Shown: one piece after another, positions 28,285 to 47,576 of the stretch
How the letters are laid out: each line of letters opens with the position of its first letter
Position numbering within the stretch: the first letter of the stretch is position 1
Assembly (NCBI RefSeq): GCF_002953215.1
Contig: NZ_CP026378.1
Span: 1,656,540-1,720,539, forward strand
Direction: 5' to 3'
DNA from: Mixta calida
GTDB taxonomy: Bacteria > Pseudomonadota > Gammaproteobacteria > Enterobacterales > Enterobacteriaceae
DNA length: 64,000 bases
Notes under the pieces: model-generated
What the model saw: the letters and a program-made list of their open reading frames with translations, nothing else
Told to the model about the DNA's origin: nothing
Database searches by the model: none
Position numbers and translations under genes: made by a program

Positions 28285-30825
28285 ATGAAAAAAAACACCA
28301 TGCTTGGATTAGTTAAGTTTAATCCAATTGCTGCCTCTATTCTGTTAGCGTTGCCGATCGTAACGCAAGCAGTCACACCGAGTACAAGGGGGACCAATGT
28401 CAATCAGGTCAATGGAGTAACTGTCATTGATATTGATACGGCAAATGCAAAAGGCATTTCTCACAATATTTATGGATCATTAAGCGTCGATAAAAATGGT
28501 TTGATATTCAATAACAGTAATACCAGCGTCAACACCTCGCTGGCTGGTCAGATTAATGGTAACAGCAACCTTACCTCTGGTAGCGCAAAAGTTATTGTTA
28601 ACGAAGTGACAACCACTAATAAGAGCCATCTGAATGGCATATTGGAAGTTGCGGGTAGCAAAGCGCATTTAATTATCGCCAACCCGAATGGCATTAGCTG
28701 CCAGGGCTGTGGCTTTATTAATACGGATAAGGTGACAATAACCACCGGTAAGCCAGATATGCAAAATGGTGAGTTAAAAGGCTATAGCGTTAACGGTGGT
28801 ATAATCAACGTCAATGGCCTGGGCAGCGATTCGCCAACGGAAATCCTGGCACGTTCTGTTGCCACAAGCGGCCTGGTTATCGCACCGTCCCTGTCAGTAG
28901 TAGCGGGCAGCAACTACGTTGATACGACAGGGAATGTGACGGGAAGCGTGAAGGCGCAGGGAAGCCGTAACCAATATAGCATTGACGTAGCCAATATTGG
29001 CGGCATGTACGCTGACAGAATTAGTCTGGTCAGCACGGATAAAGGTATTGGCGTTCGTAACTCCGGTGTAATAGCTGGCTCTTCCAGCGTCCAGATTAAC
29101 AGTAACGGTAAGCTGGTTAACAACAATGCCCAAATAACTTCTGGCATGAACGTGGATATAAAAACCAGCGAAATGCTGGAGAATGTTACCGGAAAAATTT
29201 CCAGCGATGGCGATATCAGTATTAATACTAACCGGAAGACAATTAACAACTCGCGCGCGGGTAATATTATTTCTTCTGGAAACATTAATATTGACAGCGG
29301 TGCGCTGGACAACACTAATGGTAAAATGGCTGCAAGCGAAAAGCTGGAAATTAATACCAATAACAACAAGCTGATCAACTACGGCAAAGGTGAAAGGGTA
29401 GGCATCAATGCTGGGGCCGTGGTGCTGAATACCGGCGTCCTTGATAACCGTGATGGTTCCTTAAAAGGCTACAATATCAGCGCTAATAGCAGCGGCATCA
29501 ATAATACTCATGGAATTATTGAAGCTTCAGGCAATATTGATTTAGTAAGTAACCTTGATATCTATAATACCGAAGGGCGAATCCGTACCGCTACAGGTCA
29601 TATCAAAATCGATGCCTCTAAAGGTATCTTTAACAACAATAAAACCAGAACCGCTGATTATACCAGTGAGGATACGCTGGGCGTCGCTGCCGGTGAAGGC
29701 GGTGCCGAAATTAAAGCCATCACTGTGAATAACCAGTCAGGGCAAATTGGCTCAAACGGTACCATCTCTTTTATCAGCACCGGCAAAGTTGATAACTTCA
29801 AGGGTAAACTGTCCGCTGAGAAAGGGCTGACTATTAAGGCTAAGAACTTTAGCAACGGCCAGGCCGGCACCAGCGTTAATGGCAATGTTACTATAGATCT
29901 GACGGGCGAGTTTGCTAATAATATTGGCATCTTTTCTGCCAGAAATGGTGATATCTCCCTGAAGGCAAATTATGTTAATAACAGCGGTGCAGTACTGGAA
30001 GGGCGGAATGTTAATATTGAAGCTAAAGATTGGGTAAACAATAAGGATGCCCTGTTGGTTGCTCATCAAAAACTGGTGATCAATGCTGTTAACCATATAG
30101 ATAACAGTAATGGCGAATATTTTGGCCATGATTACGGGATCTACCTGGGAATGATGAACCAGCCTGGCGGACTTGATGGCAAGGGCGGAGTGGAGATTCA
30201 TACCAGAAGCATTAATAACAATCATAGCCGTATCGTTGCCGAATCTGGCTCGCTGGATATGGTAATCGGTGAAGCAGTTCATAACTCTCATGCCATGATT
30301 GTTTCTAAAGCAGGTGCCCCAGTCAACATCAAGGCCCAGAGTATCCATAACAACTACTCTACGATCAGCAGTAATGGTGCCCTGAATATTGAAACTGGCT
30401 TCCTGAGCAACAGCGGTAGTGGCACTATGATTGATAATAATGCTACAGGGATCATATCTTCTGTCGATGATTTAAGGCTGACGGTAGGGCAAAGTTTTAC
30501 TAACTATGGCTGGATCAACAGTAAAAAAGATGCCTACATTAATGTTAACGGTACTTTATCAAACTCTAATACAATTAATGCCGATGGCTCGCTTTTTATT
30601 AACGGCACCAGCGTTAATAACTACAGAAGCATGTCGGCAGGCAACAGACTGGAAGCGAAATCAGATTCATATATCGATAACTTCGGCAATATGAACGCTG
30701 CTGTTATGGCGCTTGATGCTAAGGGTAGTATTGGCAATCTCGGCGTTATCCTCGGTAGAAGCGCGTTAACGACCAATGCCCGGAATATTTATAACTATGC
30801 CACTATGACGAGCTATGGCTTTTAA
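28285..30825 (+). CDS. TpsA-type two-partner-secretion exoprotein (filamentous-haemagglutinin-like)
   Basis: The 846-residue protein has a signal peptide (about 1-29, ends TQA-VTP) and an N-terminal TPS secretion domain. Its key motifs are ISHNIYGSLSVDKNGLIFNNS (58-78 region), NPNGI at 133-137 and a CQGC pair at 139-142. The rest consists of FHA-like repeats rich in Asn, Gly and Ser (INTNNN, INNSRAG, VNNSG), expected to form a right-handed beta-helix. It would be exported across the outer membrane by the adjacent TpsB. It is short for an adhesin-type TpsA (often over 1500 residues) and ends in repeat sequence, with no C-terminal toxin or effector domain recognised. It may be complete or truncated. 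Confidence 0.9.
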   Translation: MKKNTMLGLVKFNPIAASILLALPIVTQAVTPSTRGTNVNQVNGVTVIDIDTANAKGISHNIYGSLSVDKNGLIFNNSNTSVNTSLAGQINGNSNLTSGSAKVIVNEVTTTNKSHLNGILEVAGSKAHLIIANPNGISCQGCGFINTDKVTITTGKPDMQNGELKGYSVNGGIINVNGLGSDSPTEILARSVATSGLVIAPSLSVVAGSNYVDTTGNVTGSVKAQGSRNQYSIDVANIGGMYADRISLVSTDKGIGVRNSGVIAGSSSVQINSNGKLVNNNAQITSGMNVDIKTSEMLENVTGKISSDGDISINTNRKTINNSRAGNIISSGNINIDSGALDNTNGKMAASEKLEINTNNNKLINYGKGERVGINAGAVVLNTGVLDNRDGSLKGYNISANSSGINNTHGIIEASGNIDLVSNLDIYNTEGRIRTATGHIKIDASKGIFNNNKTRTADYTSEDTLGVAAGEGGAEIKAITVNNQSGQIGSNGTISFISTGKVDNFKGKLSAEKGLTIKAKNFSNGQAGTSVNGNVTIDLTGEFANNIGIFSARNGDISLKANYVNNSGAVLEGRNVNIEAKDWVNNKDALLVAHQKLVINAVNHIDNSNGEYFGHDYGIYLGMMNQPGGLDGKGGVEIHTRSINNNHSRIVAESGSLDMVIGEAVHNSHAMIVSKAGAPVNIKAQSIHNNYSTISSNGALNIETGFLSNSGSGTMIDNNATGIISSVDDLRLTVGQSFTNYGWINSKKDAYINVNGTLSNSNTINADGSLFINGTSVNNYRSMSAGNRLEAKSDSYIDNFGNMNAAVMALDAKGSIGNLGVILGRSALTTNARNIYNYATMTSYGF

Positions 30826-30938
30826 ACGATAGTAACAAGCGGTCAATGCCGGTCGCTTTGCTAACTTATGAACGGCACGGCGCACCCTGCCTGACGCTTA
30901 TCGCATAATAGTGGTAATTTAACTCAGTAATACAATAA

Positions 30939-30968
30939 AAGCGGCAGCTATGCTGCTGCTTTTATTTG
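30939..30968 (+). terminator. Hairpin between tpsA and tpsB
   Basis: AAAAGCGGCAGC pairs with GCTGCTGCTTTT around TAT (one G-T pair). It ends in a short T-rich stretch and may attenuate transcription from tpsA into tpsB. Confidence 0.5.
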
Positions 30969-30981
30969 ATTGAGAAAAGGT

Positions 30982-32631
30982 ATGAAATTCAAAACGGATC
31001 TTTCTTGTTTTTTTATCGCTTGCCTGCTCCCTTTCCAGGCGGTAGCCGAGACGGATTTAAACCATCTGATCAAGGAACAGCAGAATAATGACCATGCGAC
31101 GCGTCGTGAAAACCGGATTGAAAAAAAAGATGTCTATTCCAGCGTTGAGCCGCAGGCGTTAAATAAACTGAATATTCCGCAGGAAAAAGAGTGCTTTGTA
31201 ATAAAAGAAGTAGATCTACAAAATGATTTCCTGAAAAGCGCGGCAATTAAGAAAATAAAAAAAGAGATGGCGGGGCGGTGTCTGGGAGCGCAGGGCATAG
31301 AAAAACTGGCTGTTGCGCTACAGGATTATTTTATCAGCTCTGGTTTCGTCACTACGCGGGTTGAAATCCCTTCGCAGGATTTAACAACTCACCATCTGAT
31401 ATTAAAGGTTGTGCCGGGACGTATTGATAAGATTATTATTCAGAATAATGATGTTCGCCATGAAATTTTACCATTTGCTACCGGTGATATCCTTAATATC
31501 AGAGATATTGAACAGGGGCTGGAAAATTTACAAGGCGTACCGGGTGTTAACGTAAAGGTGGATATCGCGCCGGGAGAGCGGAATGGCTACAGCAATGTCG
31601 TTATCGCGACCAACCGCTCCTCAAACTGGAATGTAAGGGCATCTTATAATAATTGGGGAGATAAAACTACCGGACAACAGTTGGCAGGCGGTGCGGGATA
31701 TTTATATAACCTGGCAAGAATTAATGATATTTTTTATCTGTCGGGAACACGCAGCTCAACGGGAGAATACAAAAGCATTGGCACCTATTATTCTTTCCCG
31801 TTTGGTTACTGGGACTATGAGCTGTTTTACAGTAAAAGCGGATCCCGGCAGGGCATGAAGATTGACTCTCTGGATCTAAATTACCGTGGTGAAAGCAAAT
31901 ACTGGAGCTTAAAATCGTCCAGAACGTTTTATCGCGATAAAGATAAAAAAATCACCGGTAGCGCTGAAATATTCAGAAGAAAGTCAGATTATAAGCTGGA
32001 TGATATCGATCTGGTACTACAAAAACGTGATATGGGCAATGTGCGCTTTGGTGTTAATTATAAGCAAAATTTTTCTGGCGCGGTGCTGGATGGCGCTCTC
32101 ACCTATCAACGTTTTTTAACCTGGTTTGGTGGAACCGCTACGCCGGGTATGAAGTCAGGAGATGTAAGCCCCTTGGCTCAGGTCGTGAATCTGGAGGTAA
32201 ATTATGCCCAGCTATTAAATAATCTTCCGGTTAAGAGCTATTACAATATTAAATTTGGTGCACAGTACGCACCTGAATCGTTAACTTTACAGGATCAGAT
32301 GACGTTGGGCGATCGCTGGAACGTACGTGGTTTTGAAAAAAGTCCGGGGCTATATGGCGACAGAGGTTACTATATTCAAAATACATTGAATATTGTTACA
32401 GGTGTTAGTGACGCTGAGTTTTATCTTGGCGCTGATTATGGACAAGTCTCAGATTGTATTTCTTCACAGGATGGCTACGATAGCAAAAAACTTATGGGGG
32501 CAACTGCCGGAGTAAAAGGCAGTATCAGATCGCTGGGGTATGACGTTTCGCTGTCTGCTCCCATCCTGTATCCAGATAATTTTTCTACTGATAAATTCAA
32601 TATAAATTTTCAAATTTACTACCAGTTATAA
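30982..32631 (+). CDS. TpsB-type outer-membrane transporter (ShlB/FhaC family)
   Basis: The 549-residue Omp85-superfamily protein has a signal peptide (MKFKTDLSCFFIACLLPFQAVA), a POTRA region (about 75-210) and a C-terminal 16-strand barrel ending in YYQL. It forms the pore that secretes and folds TpsA. The start is the ATG at 30982 after GAGAAAAGG, not the TTG 12 bp upstream. The stop is immediately followed by the PPTase gene, linking secretion genes to the biosynthetic genes in one transcript. Confidence 0.92.
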   Translation: MKFKTDLSCFFIACLLPFQAVAETDLNHLIKEQQNNDHATRRENRIEKKDVYSSVEPQALNKLNIPQEKECFVIKEVDLQNDFLKSAAIKKIKKEMAGRCLGAQGIEKLAVALQDYFISSGFVTTRVEIPSQDLTTHHLILKVVPGRIDKIIIQNNDVRHEILPFATGDILNIRDIEQGLENLQGVPGVNVKVDIAPGERNGYSNVVIATNRSSNWNVRASYNNWGDKTTGQQLAGGAGYLYNLARINDIFYLSGTRSSTGEYKSIGTYYSFPFGYWDYELFYSKSGSRQGMKIDSLDLNYRGESKYWSLKSSRTFYRDKDKKITGSAEIFRRKSDYKLDDIDLVLQKRDMGNVRFGVNYKQNFSGAVLDGALTYQRFLTWFGGTATPGMKSGDVSPLAQVVNLEVNYAQLLNNLPVKSYYNIKFGAQYAPESLTLQDQMTLGDRWNVRGFEKSPGLYGDRGYYIQNTLNIVTGVSDAEFYLGADYGQVSDCISSQDGYDSKKLMGATAGVKGSIRSLGYDVSLSAPILYPDNFSTDKFNINFQIYYQL

Positions 32632-32651
32632 TAATGATCACAGGGAAAGAA

Positions 32652-33026
32652 ATGTTTGTTGGTACGGATATTGTTGAAGTCGAACGCATTAAAAGAGCCA
32701 TTTCGCACTGGAAACACGATTTCCTTAATCGCGTCTTTACCGCGCGTGAAGTCAGTAAAATTAATGCTGAAACGCCTGATTATCAGCGTGCTGCGGGACT
32801 GTGGGCTGCTAAAGAATCTATGGTAAAGGCCATTGGCCTGGGATTTCGTAACGGTATAAGTTTTCAGGATATGGAAGTAGAGTATGATGAGTATGGCTGC
32901 CCATATTTTATCCTGCGCGGACGATTAAAAGAAATTGTAGCCGAAAAAGGAAAAGCAAAAATATCACTGAGCATTTCACACTGCCAAAACTATGCGATCG
33001 CCGTTGTGGCTGTTACGCACGATTAA
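32652..33026 (+). CDS. AcpS-type phosphopantetheinyl transferase
   Basis: The 124-residue protein is of the holo-ACP synthase family. The Mg-binding and CoA motifs GTDIVEVERI (4-13) and WAAKESMVKAIG are present, plus the C-terminal SISH. It would load phosphopantetheine on the island ACP. The ATG at 32652 has AGGGAAAG 6 bp upstream; an ATG at 32634, two bases after the tpsB stop, is the alternative. It is an extra copy besides the housekeeping acpS expected elsewhere, and equivalent in role to CylK-type enzymes. Confidence 0.9.
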   Translation: MFVGTDIVEVERIKRAISHWKHDFLNRVFTAREVSKINAETPDYQRAAGLWAAKESMVKAIGLGFRNGISFQDMEVEYDEYGCPYFILRGRLKEIVAEKGKAKISLSISHCQNYAIAVVAVTHD

Positions 33027-33058
33027 AATAAATTACCTAACAGAGCGTAGCTATTTGT

Positions 33059-33814
33059 ATGTATAAGTATGACGACCTTATCAATAAAACAGTGCTGGTA
33101 ACCGGAGCCAGCGGTGACATCGGGCTGGCCATTTGTGCGAAATTTCTTGAACAAGAGTGCCAGGTATATGCCCTGTATAACACACGATCCGCTGAATTAA
33201 TCGAGCTTAAGAATCGGCATCCTCAAGGCGACAAACTTCATATTTTACAGTGCAATCTTGCTGATAAAGATGAGGTGAGCAATTTATGCGTCTGGCTGAA
33301 TAAATCAGCCGGAAAGCTGGATGTTTTGGTTAATAATGCCGGCATCGTAAAGGATAGCCTGTTTGCCGCCATGAGTTTTGAAGATTTCAGTACGGTTATC
33401 GAACAGAACCTGCTTACTATTTTCAGACTGACAAAAGAGACGCTGATGTTGTTAAGAGCGGCAGAGAATCCGGCGATCGTGAATGTGGCATCTATCGCTG
33501 CGATTATCCCCAGTGTAGGTCAGACGAACTACAGCGCATCCAAAGGCGCGCTTCTTGGCTTTACCCGTACCCTGGCAGCAGAAATGGCAGCCAGAGGCGT
33601 ACGCGTAAATGCCGTGGCGCCAGGCATGATTGAGTCGCGGATGGTAAAAAAGGTTTCGCGAACGGTGGTAAGAGATGTATTAAGTTCAATACCGCTGAAG
33701 CGTTTGGGGCAAAGCGCTGAGGTGGCCAACACGATTGTTTTTTTAAGCTCTTCAGCATCCAGTTATATTGTTGGACAAACCATCATTATCGATGGTGGTC
33801 TGGTTATGCGGTGA
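33059..33814 (+). CDS. 3-oxoacyl-ACP reductase (FabG-like SDR)
   Basis: The 251-residue short-chain dehydrogenase has NADP loop TGASGDIG (15-22), NNAG (92-95) and the catalytic Ser145-Tyr158-Lys162 set (YSASK). The C-terminal GQTIIIDGG is typical of FabG. It is predicted to reduce the beta-keto group on the ACP-bound chain. It is followed 3 bp later by the dehydratase gene, so translation is coupled. Confidence 0.93.
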   Translation: MYKYDDLINKTVLVTGASGDIGLAICAKFLEQECQVYALYNTRSAELIELKNRHPQGDKLHILQCNLADKDEVSNLCVWLNKSAGKLDVLVNNAGIVKDSLFAAMSFEDFSTVIEQNLLTIFRLTKETLMLLRAAENPAIVNVASIAAIIPSVGQTNYSASKGALLGFTRTLAAEMAARGVRVNAVAPGMIESRMVKKVSRTVVRDVLSSIPLKRLGQSAEVANTIVFLSSSASSYIVGQTIIIDGGLVMR

Positions 33815-33817
33815 TCT

Positions 33818-34366
33818 ATGTCTAAATATGCGATTCCTGCAAAAATCTTCCTTGAGATGGGAGGCTGGCGTCAACCTTTGATAATGGTTGATCGTATTGA
33901 CGATTATAAATATGGAGAAAAAGGCTATATTCGGGTTGTCAAGCATGTTACCTATAATGAGCCTTATTTACTGGGACACTTTCCTGAAGATCCCATTATG
34001 CCGGGCGTAATGATTGCTGAAATATTTGGGCAGGCCAGTGAATACCTTTCATTTCTGACCGATATCTGTGATATTTATCGGGAGCGCCATCAGGAAAATT
34101 TGCAATCGTTGCGGGATATTCGCGCCAGAATTTATGATGCCGGGATGCTTGAAATTATCCGCGCGCGTCGGGCTCAGGTACGGGGCGTGCTGGCAGCGCA
34201 GAATTTAAAATTTAAAGAAGTCGCCTGTCCCGGAGATACCATAGAAGTGATTAGCAGACTCGCTTTTTCCGACGAGAGCGGTTTTAAGCACTACGCTGTT
34301 TCTGCTCATGTCGGCAAAAGAGAGATTAGCAAAGGCACCATCATCAATTACCGTGAAGTTAAATAG
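33818..34366 (+). CDS. 3-hydroxyacyl-ACP dehydratase (FabZ-like hot-dog)
   Basis: The 182-residue hot-dog fold protein has the FabZ signature GHFPEDPIMPGVMIAE, giving catalytic His54 and Glu68. It is longer than FabZ (about 150), with an insert after the central helix (residues 78-105). It would remove water to form a trans double bond. With no enoyl reductase in the cluster, the double bonds should persist. Confidence 0.92.
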   Translation: MSKYAIPAKIFLEMGGWRQPLIMVDRIDDYKYGEKGYIRVVKHVTYNEPYLLGHFPEDPIMPGVMIAEIFGQASEYLSFLTDICDIYRERHQENLQSLRDIRARIYDAGMLEIIRARRAQVRGVLAAQNLKFKEVACPGDTIEVISRLAFSDESGFKHYAVSAHVGKREISKGTIINYREVK

Positions 34367-34387
34367 TTATTACAGGGAGATAAGTGG

Positions 34388-34666
34388 ATGAACACAGTTA
34401 AAGATGATATTGAAAAGCGTAAAAAGATATTATTTACCATCAAAACTGAAATTATTCAGCGGCTAAATATTTCTAAAGAACCATCGCAAATTGATGACGA
34501 TACAGCGCTTTTTGGTAATGGCCTGAGGCTTGATTCCGTTGATGCCACAGAAATAGTCGTTATGCTGGATAAAGTTTTCAATGTTCAGGTAAGCGAAAGC
34601 GACGATCCCTCTTATATGAGAACGATTAATAGTTTGGCATCATTTATAATTAAGAAAAAACAATAA
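34388..34666 (+). CDS. Acyl carrier protein
   Basis: This 92-residue ACP has the phosphopantetheine attachment Ser50 in GLRLDSVDATE (DSV in place of the usual DSL). It has the acidic four-helix pattern and a weak AGGGAGA ribosome binding site. It is the carrier for the island pathway, dedicated because it differs clearly from a housekeeping AcpP. Confidence 0.92.
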   Translation: MNTVKDDIEKRKKILFTIKTEIIQRLNISKEPSQIDDDTALFGNGLRLDSVDATEIVVMLDKVFNVQVSESDDPSYMRTINSLASFIIKKKQ

Positions 34667-34713
34667 ACATATATTATAAATAAAAAAGCCATAAAGGAAT
34701 AAAGGTGTTTCAT

Positions 34714-35874
34714 ATGAAAACGCTTCATAATTTGCATTTGAACAGTAATGCCCGTATGGATGTTTATAACAGCATGAGTATGCCTGCTGCTTATCATGCT
34801 CCTGAAGTTGAATATAAAGCTGTGAGAGAAAACGCGTTGCTGGTTGACTATTCGCATATGGCTATAGTTAGCGTAACTGGCGAGGATGCCTGGGCGCTTG
34901 TTAACCAGATGGCCTCTGCCGATGTTTCCGCCATCCGCGATGAACAGGGAATATATTCTCTGATCCTTAATGACGACGGGACTATCCGTGGCGATGCTTA
35001 CTTTCTTTGCACGGATGAGGGATATTATATTCTTTCCGAAGATCTGACCGCTGACGAGATTATAACTAGTCTCAATACGATTCTGGAAAATGCTGAGGAG
35101 TTAGATATTCAGGAGCGGCCTGAAATCAGCGCTCTGAATGAGGCCGATTGGGGCGCTATATTACTGGAAGGACCCTATTCCTGGGAGGTGCTGGCGGAAA
35201 TTTACGGATTCGATATTATCGGTCTGCCTTACCATGAATTTATGCCCACGGATGATGGTTTGAACGTTTTCCGCTGCGGTAAGCATGGCGAGTTCGCCTA
35301 CTTGATGCTTGGCGAGCAGAGGGCGCTGGCTGAACTCTGGATGCGCTTACTGGAAGTAGGAGAGAAGTACCTGCTTAAAACCGGCGGCCTTGAGTATCAA
35401 AAGATAGTGCGAATTGAAAATCCCGTGTGGGACGCATCAATTTATGCAGCCTGTTCGTATAATCCGGTTGAGCTTCAGTTGCAGTGGGCTGTTCAGTACG
35501 ATAAAGAAAATTTTACCGGAAAAACGGCTGTCGAAACCCTTTCCCGCAACGGTGCGGAACGTAAATTAACCGGTATTATTCCCGTCACAACGTGCGAAAG
35601 TATCCAGGCTGGGGACAATGTGCTGGTCGGCGAAGAGGTTGTCGGTTCGGTCATTACCAGCATATTTTCGCCCGCGCGCCGCTCTGTTATCGCACTGGCT
35701 ATGATTGATAAAGATTATGCCTATTCAGATATCGCCGGTTTTACCCTCAGTACCGCGCATGGCGACGTTGCTGCAATGACGCAGGGGTTACCGTTCCTTT
35801 ATAATTTTAGTATGTTGGTTAATCCGGCTGAACACAGCTTTATCGACCCGGCAAAATTGCGCAGCGCGCTGTAG
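34714..35874 (+). CDS. GcvT-like (aminomethyltransferase/YgfZ family) protein
   Basis: The 386-residue protein has the folate-binding GcvT fold: RENALLVDYSHMAIVSVTGEDAW near the N-terminus, and the C-terminal barrel (FTGKTAVETL, GSVITSIFSPARRSVIALAMI). The start was set at ATG 34714 after AAAGG; GTG 34705 is the alternative. In the streptococcal cyl operon a GcvT homologue (CylF) also accompanies the KS/ACP genes, but its chemistry is unresolved. It might transfer a one-carbon unit or bind folate without catalysis. It ends the first transcription unit (terminator at 35903). Confidence 0.85.
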   Translation: MKTLHNLHLNSNARMDVYNSMSMPAAYHAPEVEYKAVRENALLVDYSHMAIVSVTGEDAWALVNQMASADVSAIRDEQGIYSLILNDDGTIRGDAYFLCTDEGYYILSEDLTADEIITSLNTILENAEELDIQERPEISALNEADWGAILLEGPYSWEVLAEIYGFDIIGLPYHEFMPTDDGLNVFRCGKHGEFAYLMLGEQRALAELWMRLLEVGEKYLLKTGGLEYQKIVRIENPVWDASIYAACSYNPVELQLQWAVQYDKENFTGKTAVETLSRNGAERKLTGIIPVTTCESIQAGDNVLVGEEVVGSVITSIFSPARRSVIALAMIDKDYAYSDIAGFTLSTAHGDVAAMTQGLPFLYNFSMLVNPAEHSFIDPAKLRSAL

Positions 35875-35902
35875 TTTTATTTCAGCGAAAAATTAAATAA
35901 TG

Positions 35903-35952
35903 CGGGTCTGAAAAAAATGAGTAAAAAAGTGTTATCTCAGACCCGTTTTTTT
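35903..35952 (+). terminator. Terminator inside the island after the gcvT-like gene
   Basis: CGGGTCTGA (35903-35911) pairs with TCAGACCCG (35937-35945) over a 25-nt A-rich loop, followed by seven T. It separates tpsA-gcvT-like from the ketosynthase unit. Confidence 0.8.
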
Positions 35953-39779: not shown

Positions 39780-40779
39780 TGGAACGGTGAGTATGGACCA
39801 GATCTACTTATCCTCTTTTGCAATGCTTGAGCCTGAAGACGATTTTTATTTATATTCTCCCAGTTGGCTGAATGTATGGGAGTCATATCACCATAACAAA
39901 TCATTAAAAGCCACTCAGGCTCAGGCGTGGAACCTTAAACGTTTTGGTACCGTAAAAGATACCTATGCCGGGGAAATGATCAGATCGCCCGGTTATATGA
40001 AATATATTGAGGCGATGGAGCAGGCAGCAGATCTCGCCTTACAAAAAATGACAGCAAAAGAGCGGATGCTGTTAATGAGATCGCGTACGGCATTTATTTA
40101 TATAGATTCATGGGGAGAATCGGGATTATTTGAAGATATTTCCAGCATGATGCATGTTACCCTGATTGATACGTTACCGAAAAATCTGCTGAAAATTTTT
40201 TCGGTTAAAAACTTCACCTGCAAAATACGCGGTGAAAAACAATCCCTGATGCAAGCAATAAGGCTGGCTCAGGATTATCTGAACTGGGATGTTTTCGATT
40301 TCGTGGTTATTTGCGGTGCTTATCGCGCCATACCGATTTTAATTTTTAGCGAAGAAGAGGGCGCGGCTACCCGTAAAGAAAAACCTCAGCGCATCAGGTC
40401 TAACATGTGCGTTGAGCGCGTTGGCTGTTTTATTTTCAGTCAGCGGGAGAGCCCGCTTAAGATCGGCTGCGGTAGCTGGGTGATGCCGCACCGGAATGAA
40501 ACCGGCAACGCAGAGCCGCTCATCGGCGAAGCCGAGCTCAGTCTGGTGTCGATGGCAGGCTTGAGCAACAGCAAACTCAGTGTAACGCTCGCCAGCGCGC
40601 TACAGGCCGCAGGCGCTGAAACGATCAATCTTAGCGATCGCTATGGCAGCAGCGGCTGCCTTACGCCAGCGCTAAGCTGGATATACCTTGAGCAGCACGT
40701 TAACAGTTCAGCAAAAATGCGCACCATCGTACCGGACCATCTGGGCGGGTATAACTACTTTGATAGCTGGTATTGTTAA
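39772..40779 (+). CDS. Thiolase-fold-like protein of unknown function
   Basis: The 335-residue protein is encoded from an ATG overlapping the previous stop by 8 bp. It is not confidently assigned. Weak ketosynthase-like traces are visible: SLMQAIRLAQDYL after a CKIRGEK segment in the Cys region, FVVICGAYRA, and YGSSGCLTPALSW near the C-terminus like the GHxxAA loop. No catalytic Cys/His pattern is present. An alternative start is ATG 39793. It is probably a structural or partner protein of the neighbouring ketosynthases. Confidence 0.7.
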   Translation: MNSGTVSMDQIYLSSFAMLEPEDDFYLYSPSWLNVWESYHHNKSLKATQAQAWNLKRFGTVKDTYAGEMIRSPGYMKYIEAMEQAADLALQKMTAKERMLLMRSRTAFIYIDSWGESGLFEDISSMMHVTLIDTLPKNLLKIFSVKNFTCKIRGEKQSLMQAIRLAQDYLNWDVFDFVVICGAYRAIPILIFSEEEGAATRKEKPQRIRSNMCVERVGCFIFSQRESPLKIGCGSWVMPHRNETGNAEPLIGEAELSLVSMAGLSNSKLSVTLASALQAAGAETINLSDRYGSSGCLTPALSWIYLEQHVNSSAKMRTIVPDHLGGYNYFDSWYC

Positions 40780-40799
40780 CCAGATTAACAGGAAGCATT

Positions 40800-41507
40800 A
40801 TGGCGAACGCTATTAAGGAACTGCCGGCAATTTTTCTGAGTGGTATTAATAAAAGCTTTGGCAGCAATGAAAATAAAGTTGAAGCATTGAAAAATATCAA
40901 CCTGGAAATAGCCAGTGGTGAGTTTATCGCCCTGTGCGGACCTTCCGGCAGCGGTAAAAGCACTTTGCTCAATATCCTTTCAGGCATCGATCATCCCACT
41001 TCCGGGACGGTGATGTTTCTGAATAAAGTGCTTAACAATCTTAATGAAAATCAGCTTTCCCTGATCAGATGTCAGCATCTTGGATTTATTTTTCAGTTTT
41101 TTAATCTGATCCCGGTTTTAAATGCTTTTGATAATATTTTTTATCCGCTGATCCTGAACGGCAACTACAGTAAAAAAGAAGCGCAGGCGCGCGCATCGCA
41201 CTATTTAAACAGTGTAGGACTCAGTCATATGGCAGATCGTAAGCCGGGCCAGCTATCGGGCGGTCAGCAGCAGCGGGTCGCTATCGCCAGAGCGCTGGCG
41301 CATGATCCGACGGTAGTAGTGGCTGATGAACCTACCGGTAATCTGGATCTGGCGACCGGCGATGCGGTTTTAGATCTGCTGATGAAAATTAATGAAGAAA
41401 CCAAAACGACATTTATTATCTCGACGCATTCGACCCAGCTAAAGGAACGGGCCAGGCGTGTTGTTGAAATCAAGGATGGAGAATTAGTCAGTGACGCTGA
41501 AAACTAA
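40800..41507 (+). CDS. ABC transporter ATPase (LolD/MacB type)
   Basis: The 235-residue ATPase has Walker A GPSGSGKST (47-55), signature LSGGQQQR and Walker B VVVADEP followed by TGNLD, the hallmark of LolD/MacB/FtsE ATPases. The start was set at ATG 40800 after AGGAAG; a TTG at 40773 is unlikely. It pairs with the FtsX-type permease two genes on. CylA in cyl clusters is also an ABC ATPase, but this one is of the extrusion/lipid-sorting subtype. Confidence 0.93.
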   Translation: MANAIKELPAIFLSGINKSFGSNENKVEALKNINLEIASGEFIALCGPSGSGKSTLLNILSGIDHPTSGTVMFLNKVLNNLNENQLSLIRCQHLGFIFQFFNLIPVLNAFDNIFYPLILNGNYSKKEAQARASHYLNSVGLSHMADRKPGQLSGGQQQRVAIARALAHDPTVVVADEPTGNLDLATGDAVLDLLMKINEETKTTFIISTHSTQLKERARRVVEIKDGELVSDAEN

Positions 41508-42147
41508 GCTGCGCCTGTTGTTTTGCGTTTTTTTTCTGCTATTTGATCTCCGGGCGGCCGCTGAAACTTCTTTGCCTGCGGTGGAAAAGGTAGTGCAACA
41601 AAAATTTCCGGCTAAATGGAGTGAGCTGCAAAAAACTACGGATAGCTTGTGGCGCGAATATCGTGAAAAGGAAAATATTATTTCGCTGATATTCTATTCA
41701 TACGGGATGCTGAAATTAGCTAATCACTATAATACGATAAACGATCTGGTTAATGCAGCCGAATATGCCAAGCTGGGTTTTTTTTACCTCGACGAGGCGG
41801 TAGATCTGTATGAAAACGATCTACGCGTGCGTTATCTGCGCGCGCGCGTTGATGCCTGGCTGCCCGGCAGCCTGGGACGCTGTATTATTGCAATAAATGA
41901 TACGGAATTATTACTGAAATCAGCAGCGCGCTACGGTAAAGAAATAACCGATAATATTAATTACATGCGTTACCATGCGCTTAAAAGCTGTAAGGAAGAT
42001 AAACAGGCTGATGCGCTGCTTGCGCAGATAGCAGGCAATAAACCGAAGACAGAGTCAGGCTCACCAGAGAGTAATGCTGCGTCTGAATGGGATGTGAGCG
42101 AGGTCCGGCAGATCATATTGCCGTTAGTGAGGGATGCACATGATTAG
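41491..42147 (+). CDS. Exported helical protein of unknown function
   Basis: The 218-residue protein starts with GTG inside the ABC ATPase gene (17-bp overlap). A signal peptide is clear (LRLLFCVFFLLFDLRAAAE, about 7-25), so it is probably periplasmic. The mature part is alpha-helical and resembles TPR-like packing (AEYAKLGFFYLDEAVDLY). No family was recognised. Its place between ATPase and permease genes implies a role in the transport complex. Confidence 0.75.
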   Translation: MTLKTKLRLLFCVFFLLFDLRAAAETSLPAVEKVVQQKFPAKWSELQKTTDSLWREYREKENIISLIFYSYGMLKLANHYNTINDLVNAAEYAKLGFFYLDEAVDLYENDLRVRYLRARVDAWLPGSLGRCIIAINDTELLLKSAARYGKEITDNINYMRYHALKSCKEDKQADALLAQIAGNKPKTESGSPESNAASEWDVSEVRQIILPLVRDAHD

Positions 42148-43453
42148 CGCCAGGGAAGGAATGGTTTTTTTTGCAGCACTGGTTTTGGCGATGGTGCTTT
42201 ATTGCCTTTTTTTCAGGCTTCAGGATGCTAAGTTTGCCTTTTTAAATCTGTTTCGCCATAAAAGGCGTTCGCTTTCCACTATTATAGCGATTATTCTCGG
42301 TGGCGTGTCGATTTTCCTCTATGGCGGTTTTATCGATTACTCCTTCTGGATACTGAAAGAGCAGACGGTAAGAACCAACGTCGGACATCTGCAAATTTAT
42401 AATAATTTATATTTTGAAACCTCCAACAGAAGCCTGAGCGTGATTAAAAATTATGAAACGCTGAAGAACGAAATCTTAAAAGATGATGGGCTGGCTAAAT
42501 ATATTTCTACCCTGTCCGGGCAACTGGAATTTACCGGAATTATTTCACAGTATGAAAGTGAAACCTCAAGCTATTTTTCCGCGTTGGGCGTAGAGCCGAT
42601 TCCGGCGCTGAAGCTTGGCGCTTTTGATCGACTGCTGTCGGGAAGCGATCTCTCCCGGGTAAAGCATAATGAGGTAACGCTGGGAAGCGGCCTGGCAAAG
42701 ACGCTTAACGCGCATTACGGCGACTGGGTGGATACTATGGTGGTGAATACACATGGCGGCCAGGGAGCGATCTCTCTTAAGGTGCGTGGTGTTTTCGCCT
42801 CCGGCATCAAAGATTATGACGATGTGGCAATGAAAATCCCGCTGGAGACGGCACAGCGCATGATGGGCACGGATGGCGTAAGCAAAATATTAATTTTGCT
42901 TAAAAACGACAGCGATTTGCCGATATTCGCCATGAAGCTTCGCCAGTTTATCAAAGATAAAAATTTGCCGTTAACCATCAAAACATGGCAGGAGATATCA
43001 CTGTTTTACCAGCAGGTAGAGGGGCTGTTATCAGGGATCTATTTCTTTATAAAAATTATCGTCGCCCTGATCGTGATCTTTATGATCGGTAACGCCATGA
43101 CCATGAATATTGCGGAAAGAACCCGCGAAATTACTACGCTGCGAGCCATAGGACTCAAACCTTCCCATATTACCCGGCTATTTTTGCTGGAGGGGATATT
43201 TACAGGTTTTACTGGCGCGATAGGGAGTTTGATCATTGGTTTTGCTATTGCCGGCGCCATTAATCTACATGGCATTGCCATGCCGCCATCTCCGGGACAA
43301 ACGCAGGGATATACCGCCTTTATCAAGGTCAATAACCCTCAGTTAATCTGGATGACATTCTTATTGCCGGTACTGACTTCTGCTCTGGCGTCGATTCTGC
43401 CCGCGCTGCGGGCAGCCAGGCTGAATATCGCTGATGCGTTCAAATCTGTATAA
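42140..43453 (+). CDS. FtsX/LolE-type ABC permease
   Basis: The 437-residue permease has a first helix (8-27), a second at about 45-67, a large periplasmic MacB-like core, and three C-terminal helices with the FtsX signature (NIAERTREITTLRAIGL). The start is at ATG 42140, 6 bp after GAGGG; ATG 42134 is too near the ribosome binding site. Compared with LolC/E it has one extra N-terminal helix. With the ATPase it should extrude a lipid-like substrate from the inner membrane rather than import. Confidence 0.88.
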   Translation: MISAREGMVFFAALVLAMVLYCLFFRLQDAKFAFLNLFRHKRRSLSTIIAIILGGVSIFLYGGFIDYSFWILKEQTVRTNVGHLQIYNNLYFETSNRSLSVIKNYETLKNEILKDDGLAKYISTLSGQLEFTGIISQYESETSSYFSALGVEPIPALKLGAFDRLLSGSDLSRVKHNEVTLGSGLAKTLNAHYGDWVDTMVVNTHGGQGAISLKVRGVFASGIKDYDDVAMKIPLETAQRMMGTDGVSKILILLKNDSDLPIFAMKLRQFIKDKNLPLTIKTWQEISLFYQQVEGLLSGIYFFIKIIVALIVIFMIGNAMTMNIAERTREITTLRAIGLKPSHITRLFLLEGIFTGFTGAIGSLIIGFAIAGAINLHGIAMPPSPGQTQGYTAFIKVNNPQLIWMTFLLPVLTSALASILPALRAARLNIADAFKSV

Positions 43454-43463
43454 GGAGAGCATA

Positions 43464-44258
43464 ATGATGAAACAGAAAAAATGGTCCTTATTGTTCCTTC
43501 TGCCTCTCCTGCTCTCTCCTGTACCGGGATGGAGTGAGACATCGTCGCCGCAGGCGCTGGATATTATTCGTCTGTCCGACGCGGTGCGTTCCCCTAACCG
43601 ACCTTTCCGCTATACCGTGACGATACAGGAATATAAGGCCGGTGCCACACAGCCCGACAGTAAACAAATTCTGGATATCTCAATGCGCTTTATCAAGCCT
43701 GAAAAAGGGAGCGAGGCTGATGCGCGCTCCCTGGTCCGATTCGTCTGGCCGCCCAGGGATAAAGGTAAAATCATGCTGTCAGATTGGTACGATCTCTGGT
43801 TTTACACGCCGGAACTCAGGCGTCCTATTCCGATATCCCGCCAGCAAAGGCTGCTGGGGCAGATATCTAATGGCGATGTTATCGTTACAAATTTTGAGTA
43901 TGGCTATAACGCTGAGCTGGTAGGGGAAGTGCCCTGTGGAGAAAAAAAGTGCTATAAGCTGGTGCTGGCGCGCAAGTTACCCGAAGTCACCTATCCGAGA
44001 GTGATCTATTACGTTGAAAAAGAGAGCGACTATCGCCCCTATAAAGCGGATTACTACTCCCTCGATAATAAACTGATTAAAGAGGTGCGCTACCAAAACT
44101 ACAGGCAGGTATTGGGGAAAGCAAGACCCACCAAAATTGTGATTCAGGATGCCCGCTACGGTAACGCTTACTCCGTTATGGAATACAGCGATATTCGCTT
44201 TGAATCGCTGCCCGTATCGCATTTTACAAAAGAGTATATTCAACGCGGGGGGCGCTGA
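43464..44258 (+). CDS. LolA-like outer-membrane lipoprotein-sorting protein
   Basis: The 264-residue protein has a signal peptide (MMKQKKWSLLFLLPLLLSPVPGWSE). It resembles the outer membrane lipoprotein-sorting (LolA-like) family that accompanies FtsX-type permeases: SLVRFVWPPRDKGKIMLSDWYDLWFYTPELRRPIPIS and the YYVEKESDYRPYKADYY strand pattern. It would carry a hydrophobic cargo through the periplasm. The start follows TAAGGAG, directly at the permease stop. Confidence 0.83.
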   Translation: MMKQKKWSLLFLLPLLLSPVPGWSETSSPQALDIIRLSDAVRSPNRPFRYTVTIQEYKAGATQPDSKQILDISMRFIKPEKGSEADARSLVRFVWPPRDKGKIMLSDWYDLWFYTPELRRPIPISRQQRLLGQISNGDVIVTNFEYGYNAELVGEVPCGEKKCYKLVLARKLPEVTYPRVIYYVEKESDYRPYKADYYSLDNKLIKEVRYQNYRQVLGKARPTKIVIQDARYGNAYSVMEYSDIRFESLPVSHFTKEYIQRGGR

Positions 44259-45622
44259 TGTTACGTTCTGCTCTGCCGGTTTTATCGGCAGTTCTCTTCC
44301 CGGCGATGCTTATGGCGGATTGTCTGCCTGCGGATATGGTGCTTTTTAGCCAGTTGGCCTATATGAACAGAACGCCAACGCTTTGGCAGATTGCGGGGAA
44401 TAGCCCTTACCGTACCGATAATCTGTATAATGATTTTGGGATTAAATATGCCGGTCAGTGCGCTTTAATTGAGAATGAGCTTGATGTTAACTTTTCTGTT
44501 TATGGTCTGACTTATTATCCTTATCGGCATGTGGAAAAATTCGAGCAGGACGACAACCGTCTCAGAGGAATTATTAATCAGCTCAGCTTCTCTTATAGAG
44601 TTGCAAAAGCGCTCAGGGTAGAAGCGGGCAAACTGAAAAATCCTGTTGGGCTGTTCTATCTAAAATCTCCGGCGGTATTGCTGAACAATTATTATGCGGG
44701 CTTTAAAGCTACCCGCATATACGATCCGTTAATGAAACAGATCTATCCTGAAACCTCCTGGGCGATTAAATTAGCCAGTGACAGCACAGACTATTCATGG
44801 TCTTTAACGGCAGTACCAAAGTTAACCCATATTGATAAGCGGTATGAAGCATCCAGCAACTGGTCGGTAACGGAACGCGCTAATGCCAGTGAACGTTACC
44901 TGTTTTCTTACACCGATTATCGCCTGGCGGCCCATACACCTGCTGTCAACCTGGCTATAGGCGAGACAAAAAGCATTGCCGTATCCGACAGTTTTCACTA
45001 TACGCCGCAGTGGGTGTTTAATGCTGAGTTCGCCTGGCACGGAAAAGAGCAGTGGCGTCATTTTAACGTTGATAATGCTGAGAGCGTACAAAATTATCGC
45101 TTCCCAACTTCACTCTACCGCCTTGCTGAGAAGAACGGCCTCGAGCTGGCGCTGGGCGGGCAGTACACTACCGATCATTTCAGCGTACTGGGCCTGGAAT
45201 ACTATTATCAGAGCGAAGGGTATTCCAGCAGCGAGTGGCGAAAACAGCGTAAATTTATTGATTTTTTAAACAAAACCACGCCTTATGTCACATTAAATCA
45301 GGCTTTTGACAGCTATAAATATTTAATGGCGGCTGAAATAAATAACATTGCTAATAAAGGCAGCCTGCAAGGGAAACATTATATTAATGGCTATGCCAGC
45401 TTCATGATGGCGGATAGCTCCACTCTGCAACCCTATGTCGTGTTGAATTTACAGGATCAAAGTGCGATGTGGGGTGTTAATTATAACAGGCCGCTGGCGC
45501 AGAGTGACGGGAAAATGGAATTTTACAGCGGGATTTACCATGCGCAGGGAAGTAAATATTCTGAGTTTGGTCTTTTTGGCAAGACCGTTGGGGTTTATTC
45601 TGGGATGAAATATTATTTTTGA
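44258..45622 (+). CDS. Outer-membrane beta-barrel protein of unknown family
   Basis: The 454-residue protein has a signal peptide (1-21, ends MA-DC) and alternating hydrophobic strands, with a C-terminal aromatic end (GMKYYF) typical of barrels inserted by BAM. Its start overlaps the previous stop (TGATG). No named porin family was recognised. As the last member of the ABC - LolA-like - barrel series it may receive or release the cluster product at the outer membrane. Confidence 0.75.
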   Translation: MLRSALPVLSAVLFPAMLMADCLPADMVLFSQLAYMNRTPTLWQIAGNSPYRTDNLYNDFGIKYAGQCALIENELDVNFSVYGLTYYPYRHVEKFEQDDNRLRGIINQLSFSYRVAKALRVEAGKLKNPVGLFYLKSPAVLLNNYYAGFKATRIYDPLMKQIYPETSWAIKLASDSTDYSWSLTAVPKLTHIDKRYEASSNWSVTERANASERYLFSYTDYRLAAHTPAVNLAIGETKSIAVSDSFHYTPQWVFNAEFAWHGKEQWRHFNVDNAESVQNYRFPTSLYRLAEKNGLELALGGQYTTDHFSVLGLEYYYQSEGYSSSEWRKQRKFIDFLNKTTPYVTLNQAFDSYKYLMAAEINNIANKGSLQGKHYINGYASFMMADSSTLQPYVVLNLQDQSAMWGVNYNRPLAQSDGKMEFYSGIYHAQGSKYSEFGLFGKTVGVYSGMKYYF

Positions 45623-45626
45623 GAAA

Positions 45627-46559
45627 ATGCATATGAATAGCAATGTAAACTCATCGACTGTTGCTCTGCTTTTTGCCGGGCAGGGTAATCCTGTTATTGG
45701 TATGGGAGCCGATCTGTGGGATATTAATAAAACCACAAAAGCGATTTGGGATTGTGCCAGCGATATAGCGGGTATCGATCTGCGCCGCTGCTGCTTAAAA
45801 GGGCCAATGAATAAGCTGATACAGACCAGGGTTCAGCAGCTTGCTGTGACGGCAATAAATATTTCACTCTATTCATTAATGCGAGGAAAGTTAGAGTCCG
45901 AGTCCATTGTGGCTTCCTGCGGTCATAGCGTTGGGGAATATAGCGCATTATACGCTGCTGGCGTTATTACTCTTGAGGCGCTCTTTAAAATGATCGACTT
46001 TCGCGCCAGGGTAATGGATGAGCTGAGTAAAGTTAACAGAGGCGCTATGGTGGCGGTAAAGGGCGTGGACTACCTGGCGATGCGTGATTTGCTGGCCCGC
46101 TCTGATATGGAGTTGGATATTAGTTGCGATAACAGTCGCCGCCAGCAGGTGATTGGCGGAGCCTTGCCCGCGTTGAGCCAGTTTTCACAGAAGCTGGTTG
46201 CCGACCGTTATGAAACGATGAAGCTGGGCGTTAGCGGTGCCTGGCATACGCGTCTGATGAGCGAAGGCGTTCAGCCTGTGAGAGATTTTCTGGCCGGTAT
46301 AAGCATCGAACAGCCTCAACATGAGGTAGTGATGAACGTAACCGGACGACCGGAAATGAACCCGCAAGAGATACGGGAAAATTTATCGCTGCATCTCACC
46401 CATACCGTGAAATGGACCGATTCGCTGGAATATTTGCTGATGCGTAAAGAGCCCGTTATGTTTATTGAAATAAGTAATAAAGCTTATCTGGGGCTGTTGC
46501 TGAATGATTTCTCTTCTTTTTCAGCGCAGCTGTCATTGCATTGCAGAAAAATAATCTGA
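45627..46559 (+). CDS. Malonyl-CoA:ACP transacylase (FabD-like)
   Basis: The 310-residue acyltransferase has GHSVG (99-103, Ser101), catalytic His207 (GAWHTRLM) and the carboxylate-binding Arg in the DFRARVMDE stretch. The N-terminal LLFAGQGNPVIGMG matches FabD. It loads malonyl units on the island ACP and is equivalent to CylD in cyl clusters. Confidence 0.92.
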   Translation: MHMNSNVNSSTVALLFAGQGNPVIGMGADLWDINKTTKAIWDCASDIAGIDLRRCCLKGPMNKLIQTRVQQLAVTAINISLYSLMRGKLESESIVASCGHSVGEYSALYAAGVITLEALFKMIDFRARVMDELSKVNRGAMVAVKGVDYLAMRDLLARSDMELDISCDNSRRQQVIGGALPALSQFSQKLVADRYETMKLGVSGAWHTRLMSEGVQPVRDFLAGISIEQPQHEVVMNVTGRPEMNPQEIRENLSLHLTHTVKWTDSLEYLLMRKEPVMFIEISNKAYLGLLLNDFSSFSAQLSLHCRKII

Positions 46560-46574
46560 TATGAAGGTGCTGTT

Positions 46575-47576
46575 ATGAGTCCCGATTATTTTAAATTTAT
46601 ACGCTATCATGACAAGAGATTGATCCTTATTCTTTATCTTGTTCTTTTTATGCTGCTGGGTTTTTACTGGAAAAATAATGGCTATTCACTAACGCGACAG
46701 GATACGTGGCTTATCAGCGGCATCGTGGCAATCGTATTTTTCAACCTTATTTGTGAACTTAAAGCCTGGTGGATGTATAAGTATGTCCTGAAAAGCATAG
46801 ACTTTGAATTTTTCACTGGCAAACGCTGCTCCACAATAGAAAAAATAGCCAGCACACCGCTGGCAGGCGGTTTTATCGCTTACTTTATTACCTGGTTAAC
46901 CATTCAGGCTGCTTTTTTTGTTTCTGAGAAGCTGGAGAGTGTTTTTGGCCTGCTGCTTCTGCTGCCGCTCTTTTTATATCTTATCTACAGACGATTAAGA
47001 ATCTGTTATATCAAACAGGTAATCATGCAAGAGGAGCATAACACGCGTTATAAAACTCTTTATCAGGCGCTCAGCCATTACATTTTACTCAGCCTGGCAT
47101 TAAATGTGTTAACTATTAGTCCGCTGAAAAACAATGCCGACTTTTCTTTAAATGAGGGGTGGCTCTCGGCGCGACTGATTATTGCGATGTTTATTCTTTG
47201 CGCTATCGTTCTGGCTATAGATCTGATTTTTTCCTGCCGCTCCAGACGTTATGTTCTTTTGGGTAAGTTGTTTCTGAAAGAGATTGAAATCACCTCGCCG
47301 GCTGCTGTCCCCTGTGCTTCGTTGTACGCTAAACCCGTCGTGCTCAGAATACTCTTTTTGTTGATCGTACAGTTTGCATGGATTTTACTTCTCAATGTCG
47401 TGCTTACCCTGCTGGAGTGGAACCTTCCGTTTGAAGTTTATTACCTGTTCTGCTTCTTTCCGGCAGGTGGATACTATTGCCTGCATTTATGCTGGCTATG
47501 GCGCACCGATTATCTTGCAGCATGTGATATGTACCTGCGCTGTAATGTAATCAGCAAGCGCTCTGGTTTCTGGTAG
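46575..47576 (+). CDS. Polytopic membrane protein of unknown function
   Basis: The 333-residue protein has about eight membrane segments and a Lys/Arg-rich first loop. No conserved catalytic motif was recognised. It follows the transacylase by 15 bp after AAGGTG, so belongs to the same unit and is its last gene. It could be a membrane acyltransferase-like or tailoring/transport factor, but nothing in the sequence proves this. Confidence 0.7.
   Translation: MSPDYFKFIRYHDKRLILILYLVLFMLLGFYWKNNGYSLTRQDTWLISGIVAIVFFNLICELKAWWMYKYVLKSIDFEFFTGKRCSTIEKIASTPLAGGFIAYFITWLTIQAAFFVSEKLESVFGLLLLLPLFLYLIYRRLRICYIKQVIMQEEHNTRYKTLYQALSHYILLSLALNVLTISPLKNNADFSLNEGWLSARLIIAMFILCAIVLAIDLIFSCRSRRYVLLGKLFLKEIEITSPAAVPCASLYAKPVVLRILFLLIVQFAWILLLNVVLTLLEWNLPFEVYYLFCFFPAGGYYCLHLCWLWRTDYLAACDMYLRCNVISKRSGFW

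What the first reader, a model, noticed from the sequence alone, without database searches (positions are those of the whole stretch)
28285..47576. Gram-negative cyl-like polyene/lipid pathway joined to two-partner secretion
Fifteen or more genes in one direction combine PPTase, KR, DH, ACP, GcvT-like, KS-CLF, two degenerate KS-like proteins, malonyl transferase, ABC/LolA-like/barrel export and TpsA/TpsB. The enzyme set mirrors the streptococcal granadaene (cyl) operon (CylD, CylG, AcpC, CylZ, CylF, CylI, CylK equivalents) but lacks CylE and CylJ equivalents. There is no enoyl reductase, so a polyene is expected. I know of no described enterobacterial system with this combination.
Basis: partly seen in the sequence, partly recalled or inferred. 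Interest (0 to 1): 0.92.

Follow-up and report, generated by a model that had tools for sequence, protein, structure and literature searches.

The report
Polyene lipid island with adhesin secretion
This 19-kb gene island, which recurs in many enterobacteria and survives as a two-gene scrap in laboratory E. coli K-12, is predicted to build a polyene lipid and carry it to the cell surface, where a secreted fibre protein likely joins it; no report of the lipid itself was found.

Summary
In detail: 17 same-strand genes (28285-47576) fill a 20.8-kb insert between tRNA-Gly and tRNA-Cys of a Mixta genome, encoding TpsA, TpsB, AcpS, KR, DH, ACP, GcvT-like, KS-CLF, two more KS-fold proteins, a LolDE/LolA-like export route with a candidate barrel, a malonyltransferase and YcdU. 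TpsB accompanies the pathway in 29 of 63 loci compared; those placed on a KS-CLF tree form one clade, so TpsAB belongs to a derived branch of a wider system.

The novelty claim needs correction: the E. [quoted passage not shown] New here: K-12 ymdE-ycdU are this cluster's tail (367 of 5426 complete E. coli hold at least 80% of it; at least 2276 hold ycdU without KS-CLF); the second KS has Ser-His-Tyr in place of Cys-His-His; TPS-free relatives occur in Pseudomonas, Paraburkholderia, Erwinia and Desulfatitalea.

A polyene is inferred, not shown; FabI is present in trans; CylE was not tested. Verdict: a new, uncharacterised variant of type II polyene-lipid pathways with a conserved link to two-partner secretion.

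The parts
27232..48007 (.). island: 20.8-kb insert between tRNA-Gly (27156-27231) and tRNA-Cys (48008-48081)
   Evidence: the left and right flank matches lie 24 and 17 bases apart in two congeners (G007, G006), about 1.1 kb in G005 and about 20-21 kb in G000-G004
28285..30825 (+). TpsA: filamentous-haemagglutinin-type exoprotein, 846 aa, no toxin domain found
   Evidence: Pfam TPS 4.5e-38; a TpsA hit in 27 of 29 TpsB-bearing loci
30982..32631 (+). TpsB: outer-membrane transporter with POTRA domains
   Evidence: ShlB 5.1e-64, POTRA_2, POTRA_3
32634..33026 (+). AcpS-type phosphopantetheinyl transferase
   Evidence: ACPS 1.1e-18
33059..33814 (+). 3-ketoacyl-ACP reductase (KR)
   Evidence: NCBIfam 3oxo_ACP_reduc 2e-70, below its cut-off
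33818..34366 (+). FabZ-like dehydratase (DH)
   Evidence: FabA-like 1.3e-15
34388..34666 (+). acyl carrier protein
   Evidence: PP-binding 4.8e-07
34714..35874 (+). GcvT-like (CylF-type) folate-domain protein; the Asp altered in PDB 3a8k is kept
   Evidence: GCV_T 1.4e-35; Asp kept in 61 of 61 cluster copies
36008..38566 (+). fused ketosynthase - chain length factor (KS-CLF)
   Evidence: Cys-His-His in 58 of 58 KS halves, Cys in 0 of 58 CLF halves
38544..39779 (+). KS2: ketosynthase-fold protein with Ser-His-Tyr in place of Cys-His-His; predicted acyltransferase
39772..40779 (+). KS-like partner protein, thiolase fold
40773..41507 (+). ABC ATPase, LolD-like
   Evidence: LolD 239 bits, below the 307.75 cut-off
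41491..42147 (+). 218-aa protein with a hydrophobic N-terminal stretch, likely periplasmic
   Evidence: sequence; conserved in 28 of 29 TpsB loci
42134..43453 (+). ABC permease, LolC/E-like
   Evidence: FtsX 1.8e-19, MacB_PCD; lolCE 98 bits, below cut-off
43434..44258 (+). LolA-like periplasmic lipid carrier
   Evidence: LolA_like 5.5e-37
44258..45622 (+). 454-aa candidate outer-membrane barrel
   Evidence: sequence only; no Pfam or PDB sequence match; conserved
45627..46559 (+). malonyl-CoA:ACP transferase (MAT); K-12 ymdE is its 3' remnant
   Evidence: Acyl_transf_1 1.4e-25; ymdE 98% to residues 214-313 of the E. coli MAT
46575..47576 (+). YcdU: multi-helix membrane protein, conserved cluster component
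   Evidence: 39% to K-12 YcdU; helical model, mean pLDDT 87.6; no Foldseek match at E<=0.001

Best explanation
The 17-gene, one-direction island holds a type II KS-CLF/KR/DH/ACP pathway predicted to build a polyene acyl chain, an ABC-permease/LolA-like/barrel set that would carry the lipid product to the outer membrane, and a TpsA/TpsB pair, conserved with the pathway in one clade, that likely places a beta-helical partner protein on the same surface. Proposed steps, all inferred from families: AcpS charges the dedicated ACP; the malonyltransferase loads malonyl units; the KS half (intact Cys-His-His) elongates with the CLF half setting length; KR and DH leave a double bond each round. The Ser-His-Tyr KS2 with its KS-fold partner, which have no counterpart among the Priestia operon's listed genes, would release the chain onto an acceptor as an acyltransferase, aided by the membrane protein YcdU. 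The GcvT-like enzyme would do folate-linked one-carbon or amine chemistry on starter or head group. The LolDE-like ABC pump with the 218-aa protein would lift the lipid from the inner membrane, the LolA-like carrier cross the periplasm and the barrel insert it outside. TpsB would secrete TpsA, which adheres or presents the lipid. Shown: gene content, conservation, co-inheritance, active-site states. Not shown: any product, transport step or phenotype.
For: Families of the enzymes and exporters. Intact elongation site in 58 of 58 KS halves; none of 58 CLF halves keeps the Cys. KS2: Ser in 38 and Cys in 1 of 39 at the Cys position, His in 39 of 39, Tyr in 39 of 39. Same gene order in an E. coli, an Enterobacter plasmid and a Rahnella plasmid. 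Among 29 TpsB-bearing loci each gene from AcpS to the barrel is hit in 28 or 29; MAT in 25 and YcdU in 6, most stretches ending there. On a KS-CLF tree of 57 loci the 27 TpsB-bearing rows are one side of one branch (support 100), with the Morganellaceae next to them. TpsB distances follow those of KS-CLF, GcvT and the permease (r 0.67, 0.79, 0.63; 0 of 2000 permutations as high, largest 0.30; 25 loci). A Priestia operon has an AcpS-MAT-KR-ACP-DH-GcvT-KS/CLF core. The E. coli aryl polyene cluster also lists a LolA-like protein (PMC8253772, passages).
Against: No chemistry was measured. FabI is in the genome, so double bonds could be reduced. The barrel is not confirmed by any match. The five Morganellaceae loci scored keep TpsA but show no TpsB, LolA-like or barrel gene (0 of 5 each), so TpsA is not tied to that route everywhere. 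TpsB follows the core genes less closely than these follow each other (0.63-0.79 against 0.77-0.81), and genes sharing a history would correlate without joint function. KS2 as acyltransferase is an argument from residues alone. YcdU is unplaced, and in L061 and L067 an unassigned ORF stands between MAT and AcpS with no YcdU hit.
Confidence: 0.6

Rival explanations
1. The pathway makes a saturated or partly reduced special fatty acid or lipid, because host FabI acts on the dedicated ACP; the island is a lipid-remodelling island rather than a polyene one.
For: FabI at 92% identity to K-12 is present; the O157:H7 relative is described only as fatty-acid synthesis in two papers (passages).
Against: Dedicated ACP, PPTase, MAT and KS-CLF set the pathway apart; by recall, known polyene pathways work in hosts that also hold an enoyl reductase.
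Confidence: 0.2
2. The acyl chain is put onto TpsA itself before or during secretion, making a lipid-armed exoprotein.
For: TpsAB adjacency and co-inheritance; TpsA copies look alike at their C-terminal ends by eye, and Pfam named no toxin domain in the two scanned.
Against: No conserved Cys: several TpsA copies, such as those of L012 and L021, have none. A lipid export route stands beside TpsB, which argues for a free lipid. TPS-free clusters are common.
Confidence: 0.15
3. TpsA/TpsB is a passenger that became adjacent and is inherited with the island without working with the lipid.
For: 29 of 63 loci show no TPS gene in the stretch held (two of them, L057 and L067, cut short); two TpsB loci have no TpsA hit (L027, L032); TpsB correlates somewhat less with the core than core genes do with each other.
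Against: The clade that has TpsB spans four families, chromosomes and plasmids, and all 27 of its rows on the tree keep it.
Confidence: 0.2
4. The cluster is an aryl polyene (APE) cluster, as antiSMASH was reported to show for part of the O157:H7 locus.
For: PMC9205054, passages; KS/CLF, KR, DH, ACP and LolA-like parts are shared in kind.
Against: No acyl-ACP synthetase, RND exporter, second ACP or separate CLF and KS genes as listed for the E. coli APE cluster (passages); the same paper places the known APE cluster of ST11 in another segment.
Confidence: 0.05

Closest known systems
O-island 47 / S-loop 71 of E. coli O157:H7 (from ECs1282)
   Same: Same genes in the same order, TpsA to YcdU, in an O157:H7 genome; the first eight are listed in PMC1635569 (passages). 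It is a member of the same family.
   Different: TpsA is 1270 aa there against 846; in E. coli the cluster lies by serX, not between glyW and cysT; no product named in the passages seen.
Gram-positive cyl (granadaene) operons
   Same: KS, KR, DH, ACP, GcvT-like, malonyltransferase, PPTase or ACP synthase, ABC pump (PMC6985545, passages).
   Different: No CylE-like or glycosyltransferase gene recognised; adds KS2, KS-like partner, YcdU, LolA-like, candidate barrel and TPS; the pump is Lol-like.
Priestia megaterium plasmid operon (L075)
   Same: AcpS, MAT, KR, ACP, DH, GcvT-like and KS-CLF side by side; 25-38% identity.
   Different: No KS2, YcdU, Lol-like export or TPS among its listed genes; has an MFS transporter and a thioesterase.
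Aryl polyene clusters of Gram-negatives
   Same: Type II polyene logic and a LolA-like protein for an outer-membrane lipid (PMC8253772, passages).
   Different: RND transporter, acyl-ACP synthetase, two ACPs and separate KS genes there; none found here.
Two-partner secretion systems (FhaB/FhaC, ShlA/ShlB)
   Same: TPS-domain exoprotein next to a POTRA barrel.
   Different: Inherited with a lipid pathway; short exoprotein in which no toxin tip was found.

Membership tests
cyl (granadaene) operon | KS, KR, DH, ACP and CylF/GcvT-type gene together | tested here: met
   core list from PMC6985545 (passages)
cyl (granadaene) operon | CylE acyltransferase, said to be universal in cyl operons | tested here: inconclusive
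   no CylE sequence was compared; none of the 17 proteins was named so by Pfam/NCBIfam (lists for KR and ABC capped at 25)
cyl (granadaene) operon | GcvT-like gene orthologous to the Gram-positive one | tested here: inconclusive
   one search places the Priestia copy beside the cluster clade, on a long branch flagged as unsure
cyl (granadaene) operon | ornithine-rhamno-polyene product | not testable with these tools
   needs chemistry
aryl polyene cluster | acyl-ACP synthetase, RND exporter, two ACPs, separate KS and CLF genes | tested here: not met
   gene list in PMC8253772 (passages)
two-partner secretion | TPS-domain exoprotein next to a ShlB/POTRA transporter | tested here: met
   both are hit in 27 of 29 TpsB loci
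Lol lipoprotein sorting (LolCDE/LolA) | scores over the curated LolD and LolCE cut-offs | tested here: not met
   239 against 307.75 and 98.4 against 362.45 bits; LolA_like Pfam met
glycine-cleavage T-protein | over the curated gcvT cut-off | tested here: not met
   104.8 against 235.85 bits
glycine-cleavage T-protein | catalytic Asp (the residue changed in 3a8k; its catalytic role is recalled) | tested here: met
   61 of 61 keep it; the Asp before it is replaced in 61 of 61

The most novel reading that the evidence does not exclude
A lipid-presenting two-partner system: a dedicated polyene lipid, released by a new Ser-His-Tyr class of ketosynthase-fold acyltransferase with the orphan membrane protein YcdU, is pumped to the outer surface and displayed or used together with its own secreted TpsA fibre, so that lipid and exoprotein act as one surface weapon or adhesin; about four in ten complete E. 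coli genomes, K-12 included, carry only its stub.
Probability: 0.22. Interest if true: 0.85.

Novelty: new variant of a known kind. Interest (0 to 1): 0.62.

Why it matters
It gives a biosynthetic home to an uncharacterised K-12 gene (ycdU) and pseudogene (ymdE), which a mastitis study marked as core genes (PMC4951805, passages). It points to a widespread, unidentified surface lipid in Klebsiella, Enterobacter, Kosakonia, E. coli and others, whose cluster is filed in the papers seen as 'fatty acid synthesis' or aryl polyene. It offers a testable case of a lipid pathway inherited with two-partner secretion, and a ketosynthase-fold protein with an altered, near-invariant active site.

Tried and rejected

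Rows dropped or set by hand: KS-CLF copies under 820 aa (58 of 61 kept) and KS2 copies outside the length bounds (39 kept); in the KS-CLF tree, L014, L015 and L032 were left out, and L057 (Proteus myxofaciens, contig cut just before GcvT, TPS not visible) was placed by me in the 'TpsA only' group by kinship, while one search counts it under 'none'. The GcvT tree used 16 of 61 cluster copies, and L083 was dropped for stops. In one search the broken L015 KS-CLF entered the distances as its first piece only, and the tree was a quick one without bootstrap. L067 is also cut short. L043/L070 and L047/L069 are the same loci under two ids, L019 and L073 are near-copies, and L014 and L055 are both Proteus mirabilis, so the counts hold repeats. 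The genome scan used two short peptide patterns, so its 52 loci are a lower bound.
Full report
Observation. Between tRNA-Gly (27156-27231) and tRNA-Cys (48008-48081) lie 17 open genes on the + strand whose families are those given in 'parts'. G+C falls to 0.39-0.52 in the island. The genome is one contig of 4.3 Mb. Two of its same-genus genomes have contigs of the lengths of the Mixta tenebrionis and Mixta theicola records, so the genus is Mixta by inference.

Site. In all eight genomes searched of the genus the flanks were located. The left and right flank matches lie 24 and 17 bases apart in G007 and G006, about 1.1 kb apart in G005 and about 20-21 kb apart in G000-G004. The 335-aa gene is found in those same five of eight and in none of the other three, so five of eight genomes hold the island at this one site. 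In G002 that gene is split by a stop.

Distribution. KS-CLF relatives at E<=1e-150 occur in 29 of 392 genomes drawn evenly from the family, and at E<=1e-100 in 10 of 99 relatives, this genome included. A GcvT-like profile brought 52 loci from named genomes, a lower bound: Mixta, Kosakonia, Enterobacter, Klebsiella oxytoca, Leclercia, Silvania, Rahnella, Serratia, Pantoea, one Acinetobacter, then Erwinia, Cedecea, Pseudomonas, Paraburkholderia, Providencia, Proteus, Morganella, Desulfatitalea and others. In E. coli complete genomes the 20.3-kb TpsA-to-YcdU stretch is at least 80% covered in 367 of 5426, KS-CLF is matched in 370 of 5426 and ycdU in 2646 of 5426, in 2591 of them over at least 80% of its length. 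So at least 2276 hold ycdU sequence without KS-CLF.

K-12. In MG1655 the order is IS3D, ymdE (pseudogene), ycdU, serX. The ymdE fragment is 98% identical to residues 214-313 of the malonyltransferase, and YcdU 98.8% to the last protein, of an intact E. coli cluster. K-12 therefore keeps the tail of a lost cluster. PMC4951805 (passages) reported ymdE-ycdU as part of a mastitis core genome and noted longer ymdE in other phylogroups, without naming the cluster in the passages seen.

What is in print. O-island 47 is called 'adhesin and fatty-acid biosynthesis' (PMC5567499, passages). PMC1635569 lists ECs1282-1289, from haemagglutinin to oxoacyl-ACP synthase, as potentially making fatty-acid-containing molecules (passages). 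PMC9205054 says that antiSMASH finds an aryl polyene gene there and that the region is induced at spinach roots (passages). PMC8565820 treats OI-47 for its regulator GrvA (passages). None of the passages seen names a product. That OI-47 and the ECs1282 region are one locus is inferred from gene content. The searches were limited to open-licence papers.

Architectures. Of 63 loci compared by profile (some repeats, listed under Tried and rejected), 29 hold TpsB (a TpsA hit in 27 of 29), five Morganellaceae loci hold TpsA but no TpsB, LolA-like or barrel gene, and 29 have no TPS gene in the stretch held (L057 and L067 are cut short). Twenty-five of those last 29 show two or more KR genes; of the other four, L057 and L067 are cut short and L069 and L071 end before the first KR. 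Among the TpsB loci one of 29 (L074) shows two KR hits, both before DH. YcdU is hit in 6 of 29 TpsB loci, the others ending at or before its place, in 5 of 5 Morganellaceae loci and in 9 of 29 TPS-free loci, Pseudomonas and Desulfatitalea included; in L061 and L067 another ORF stands in its place. On a quick KS-CLF tree of 57 rows the TpsB-bearing loci form one side of one branch (27 rows, support 100) with five Morganellaceae rows next to them, one of which (L057) I put in the TpsA group by kinship only. One gain of TPS with later loss of TpsB in Morganellaceae is the simplest reading. TpsB distances correlate with KS-CLF, GcvT and permease distances at 0.67, 0.79 and 0.63 over 25 loci, against a largest permuted value of 0.30; the three core genes correlate with each other at 0.77-0.81, so TpsB follows the core a little less closely.

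Enzymes. The KS half keeps Cys-His-His in 58 of 58; the CLF half keeps the Cys in 0 of 58. KS2 has Ser (38) or Cys (1) of 39 at that place, His in 39 and Tyr in 39 of 39. From memory, a Ser-His pair is used by some KS-like acyltransferases such as DpsC; that is the basis for proposing KS2 as the release enzyme, and it is untested. The 335-aa protein adopts the KS fold. The GcvT-like protein keeps the Asp that was changed in 3a8k in 61 of 61 copies, so folate chemistry remains possible; PMC6985545 proposes that CylF makes ammonia for ornithine (passages). FabI is present in the genome.

Kinship to cyl. A Priestia plasmid operon has AcpS-MAT-KR-ACP-DH-GcvT-KS/CLF in a row, at 25-38% identity to the window's proteins. 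The shared core thus crosses the two envelope types, while KS2, the KS-like partner, YcdU, the Lol-like pump and TPS are seen only on the proteobacterial side of this comparison. In a tree of 22 GcvT-like proteins the Priestia copy falls beside the cluster clade, but on a branch flagged as too long to trust. CylE was not tested.

Verdict. A real, mobile, conserved lipid-biosynthesis and export island with a derived two-partner arm. It works like a polyene pathway by its parts; its membership in the cyl family is not established, and the genes listed for aryl polyene clusters are absent. It is a new variant of a known kind, already visible in print as an O-island but without a product in what I saw; its link to ymdE-ycdU, its KS2 site and its TPS history are set out here from the calls.

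Noticed in passing
L016 10545-11830 (NC_000913.3): K-12 ymdE-ycdU is the 3' remnant of this cluster next to IS3D; at least 2276 of 5426 complete E. coli hold ycdU sequence without KS-CLF.
   Followed up: yes
L013 7758-30668: On an Enterobacter bugandensis plasmid the cluster is flanked by two IS6-family transposase genes with the same protein accession, as in a composite transposon.
   Followed up: no
L055, L056, L058, L053, L014: Morganellaceae clusters keep a TpsA-type protein of similar length but show no TpsB, LolA-like or barrel gene.
   Followed up: partly
L051 1-6777: In a Paraburkholderia the cluster lies downstream of rpoB-rpoC; large ORFs of similar length precede it in L059, L062, L064 and L066.
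   Followed up: no
L060: The Serratia rubidaea copy is broken into many pieces (KS-CLF in five ORFs).
   Followed up: no
L089, L090 (G002): The KS-like gene is split by a stop in one congener.
   Followed up: no
L075 8007-14439: Priestia megaterium plasmids carry a compact polyene-type operon with a fused KS-CLF and a GcvT-like gene.
   Followed up: partly
L070 8801-9586: Some TPS-free clusters have an extra ORF of about 262 aa between the KS-like and ABC genes; the L070 copy has no Pfam match.
   Followed up: no
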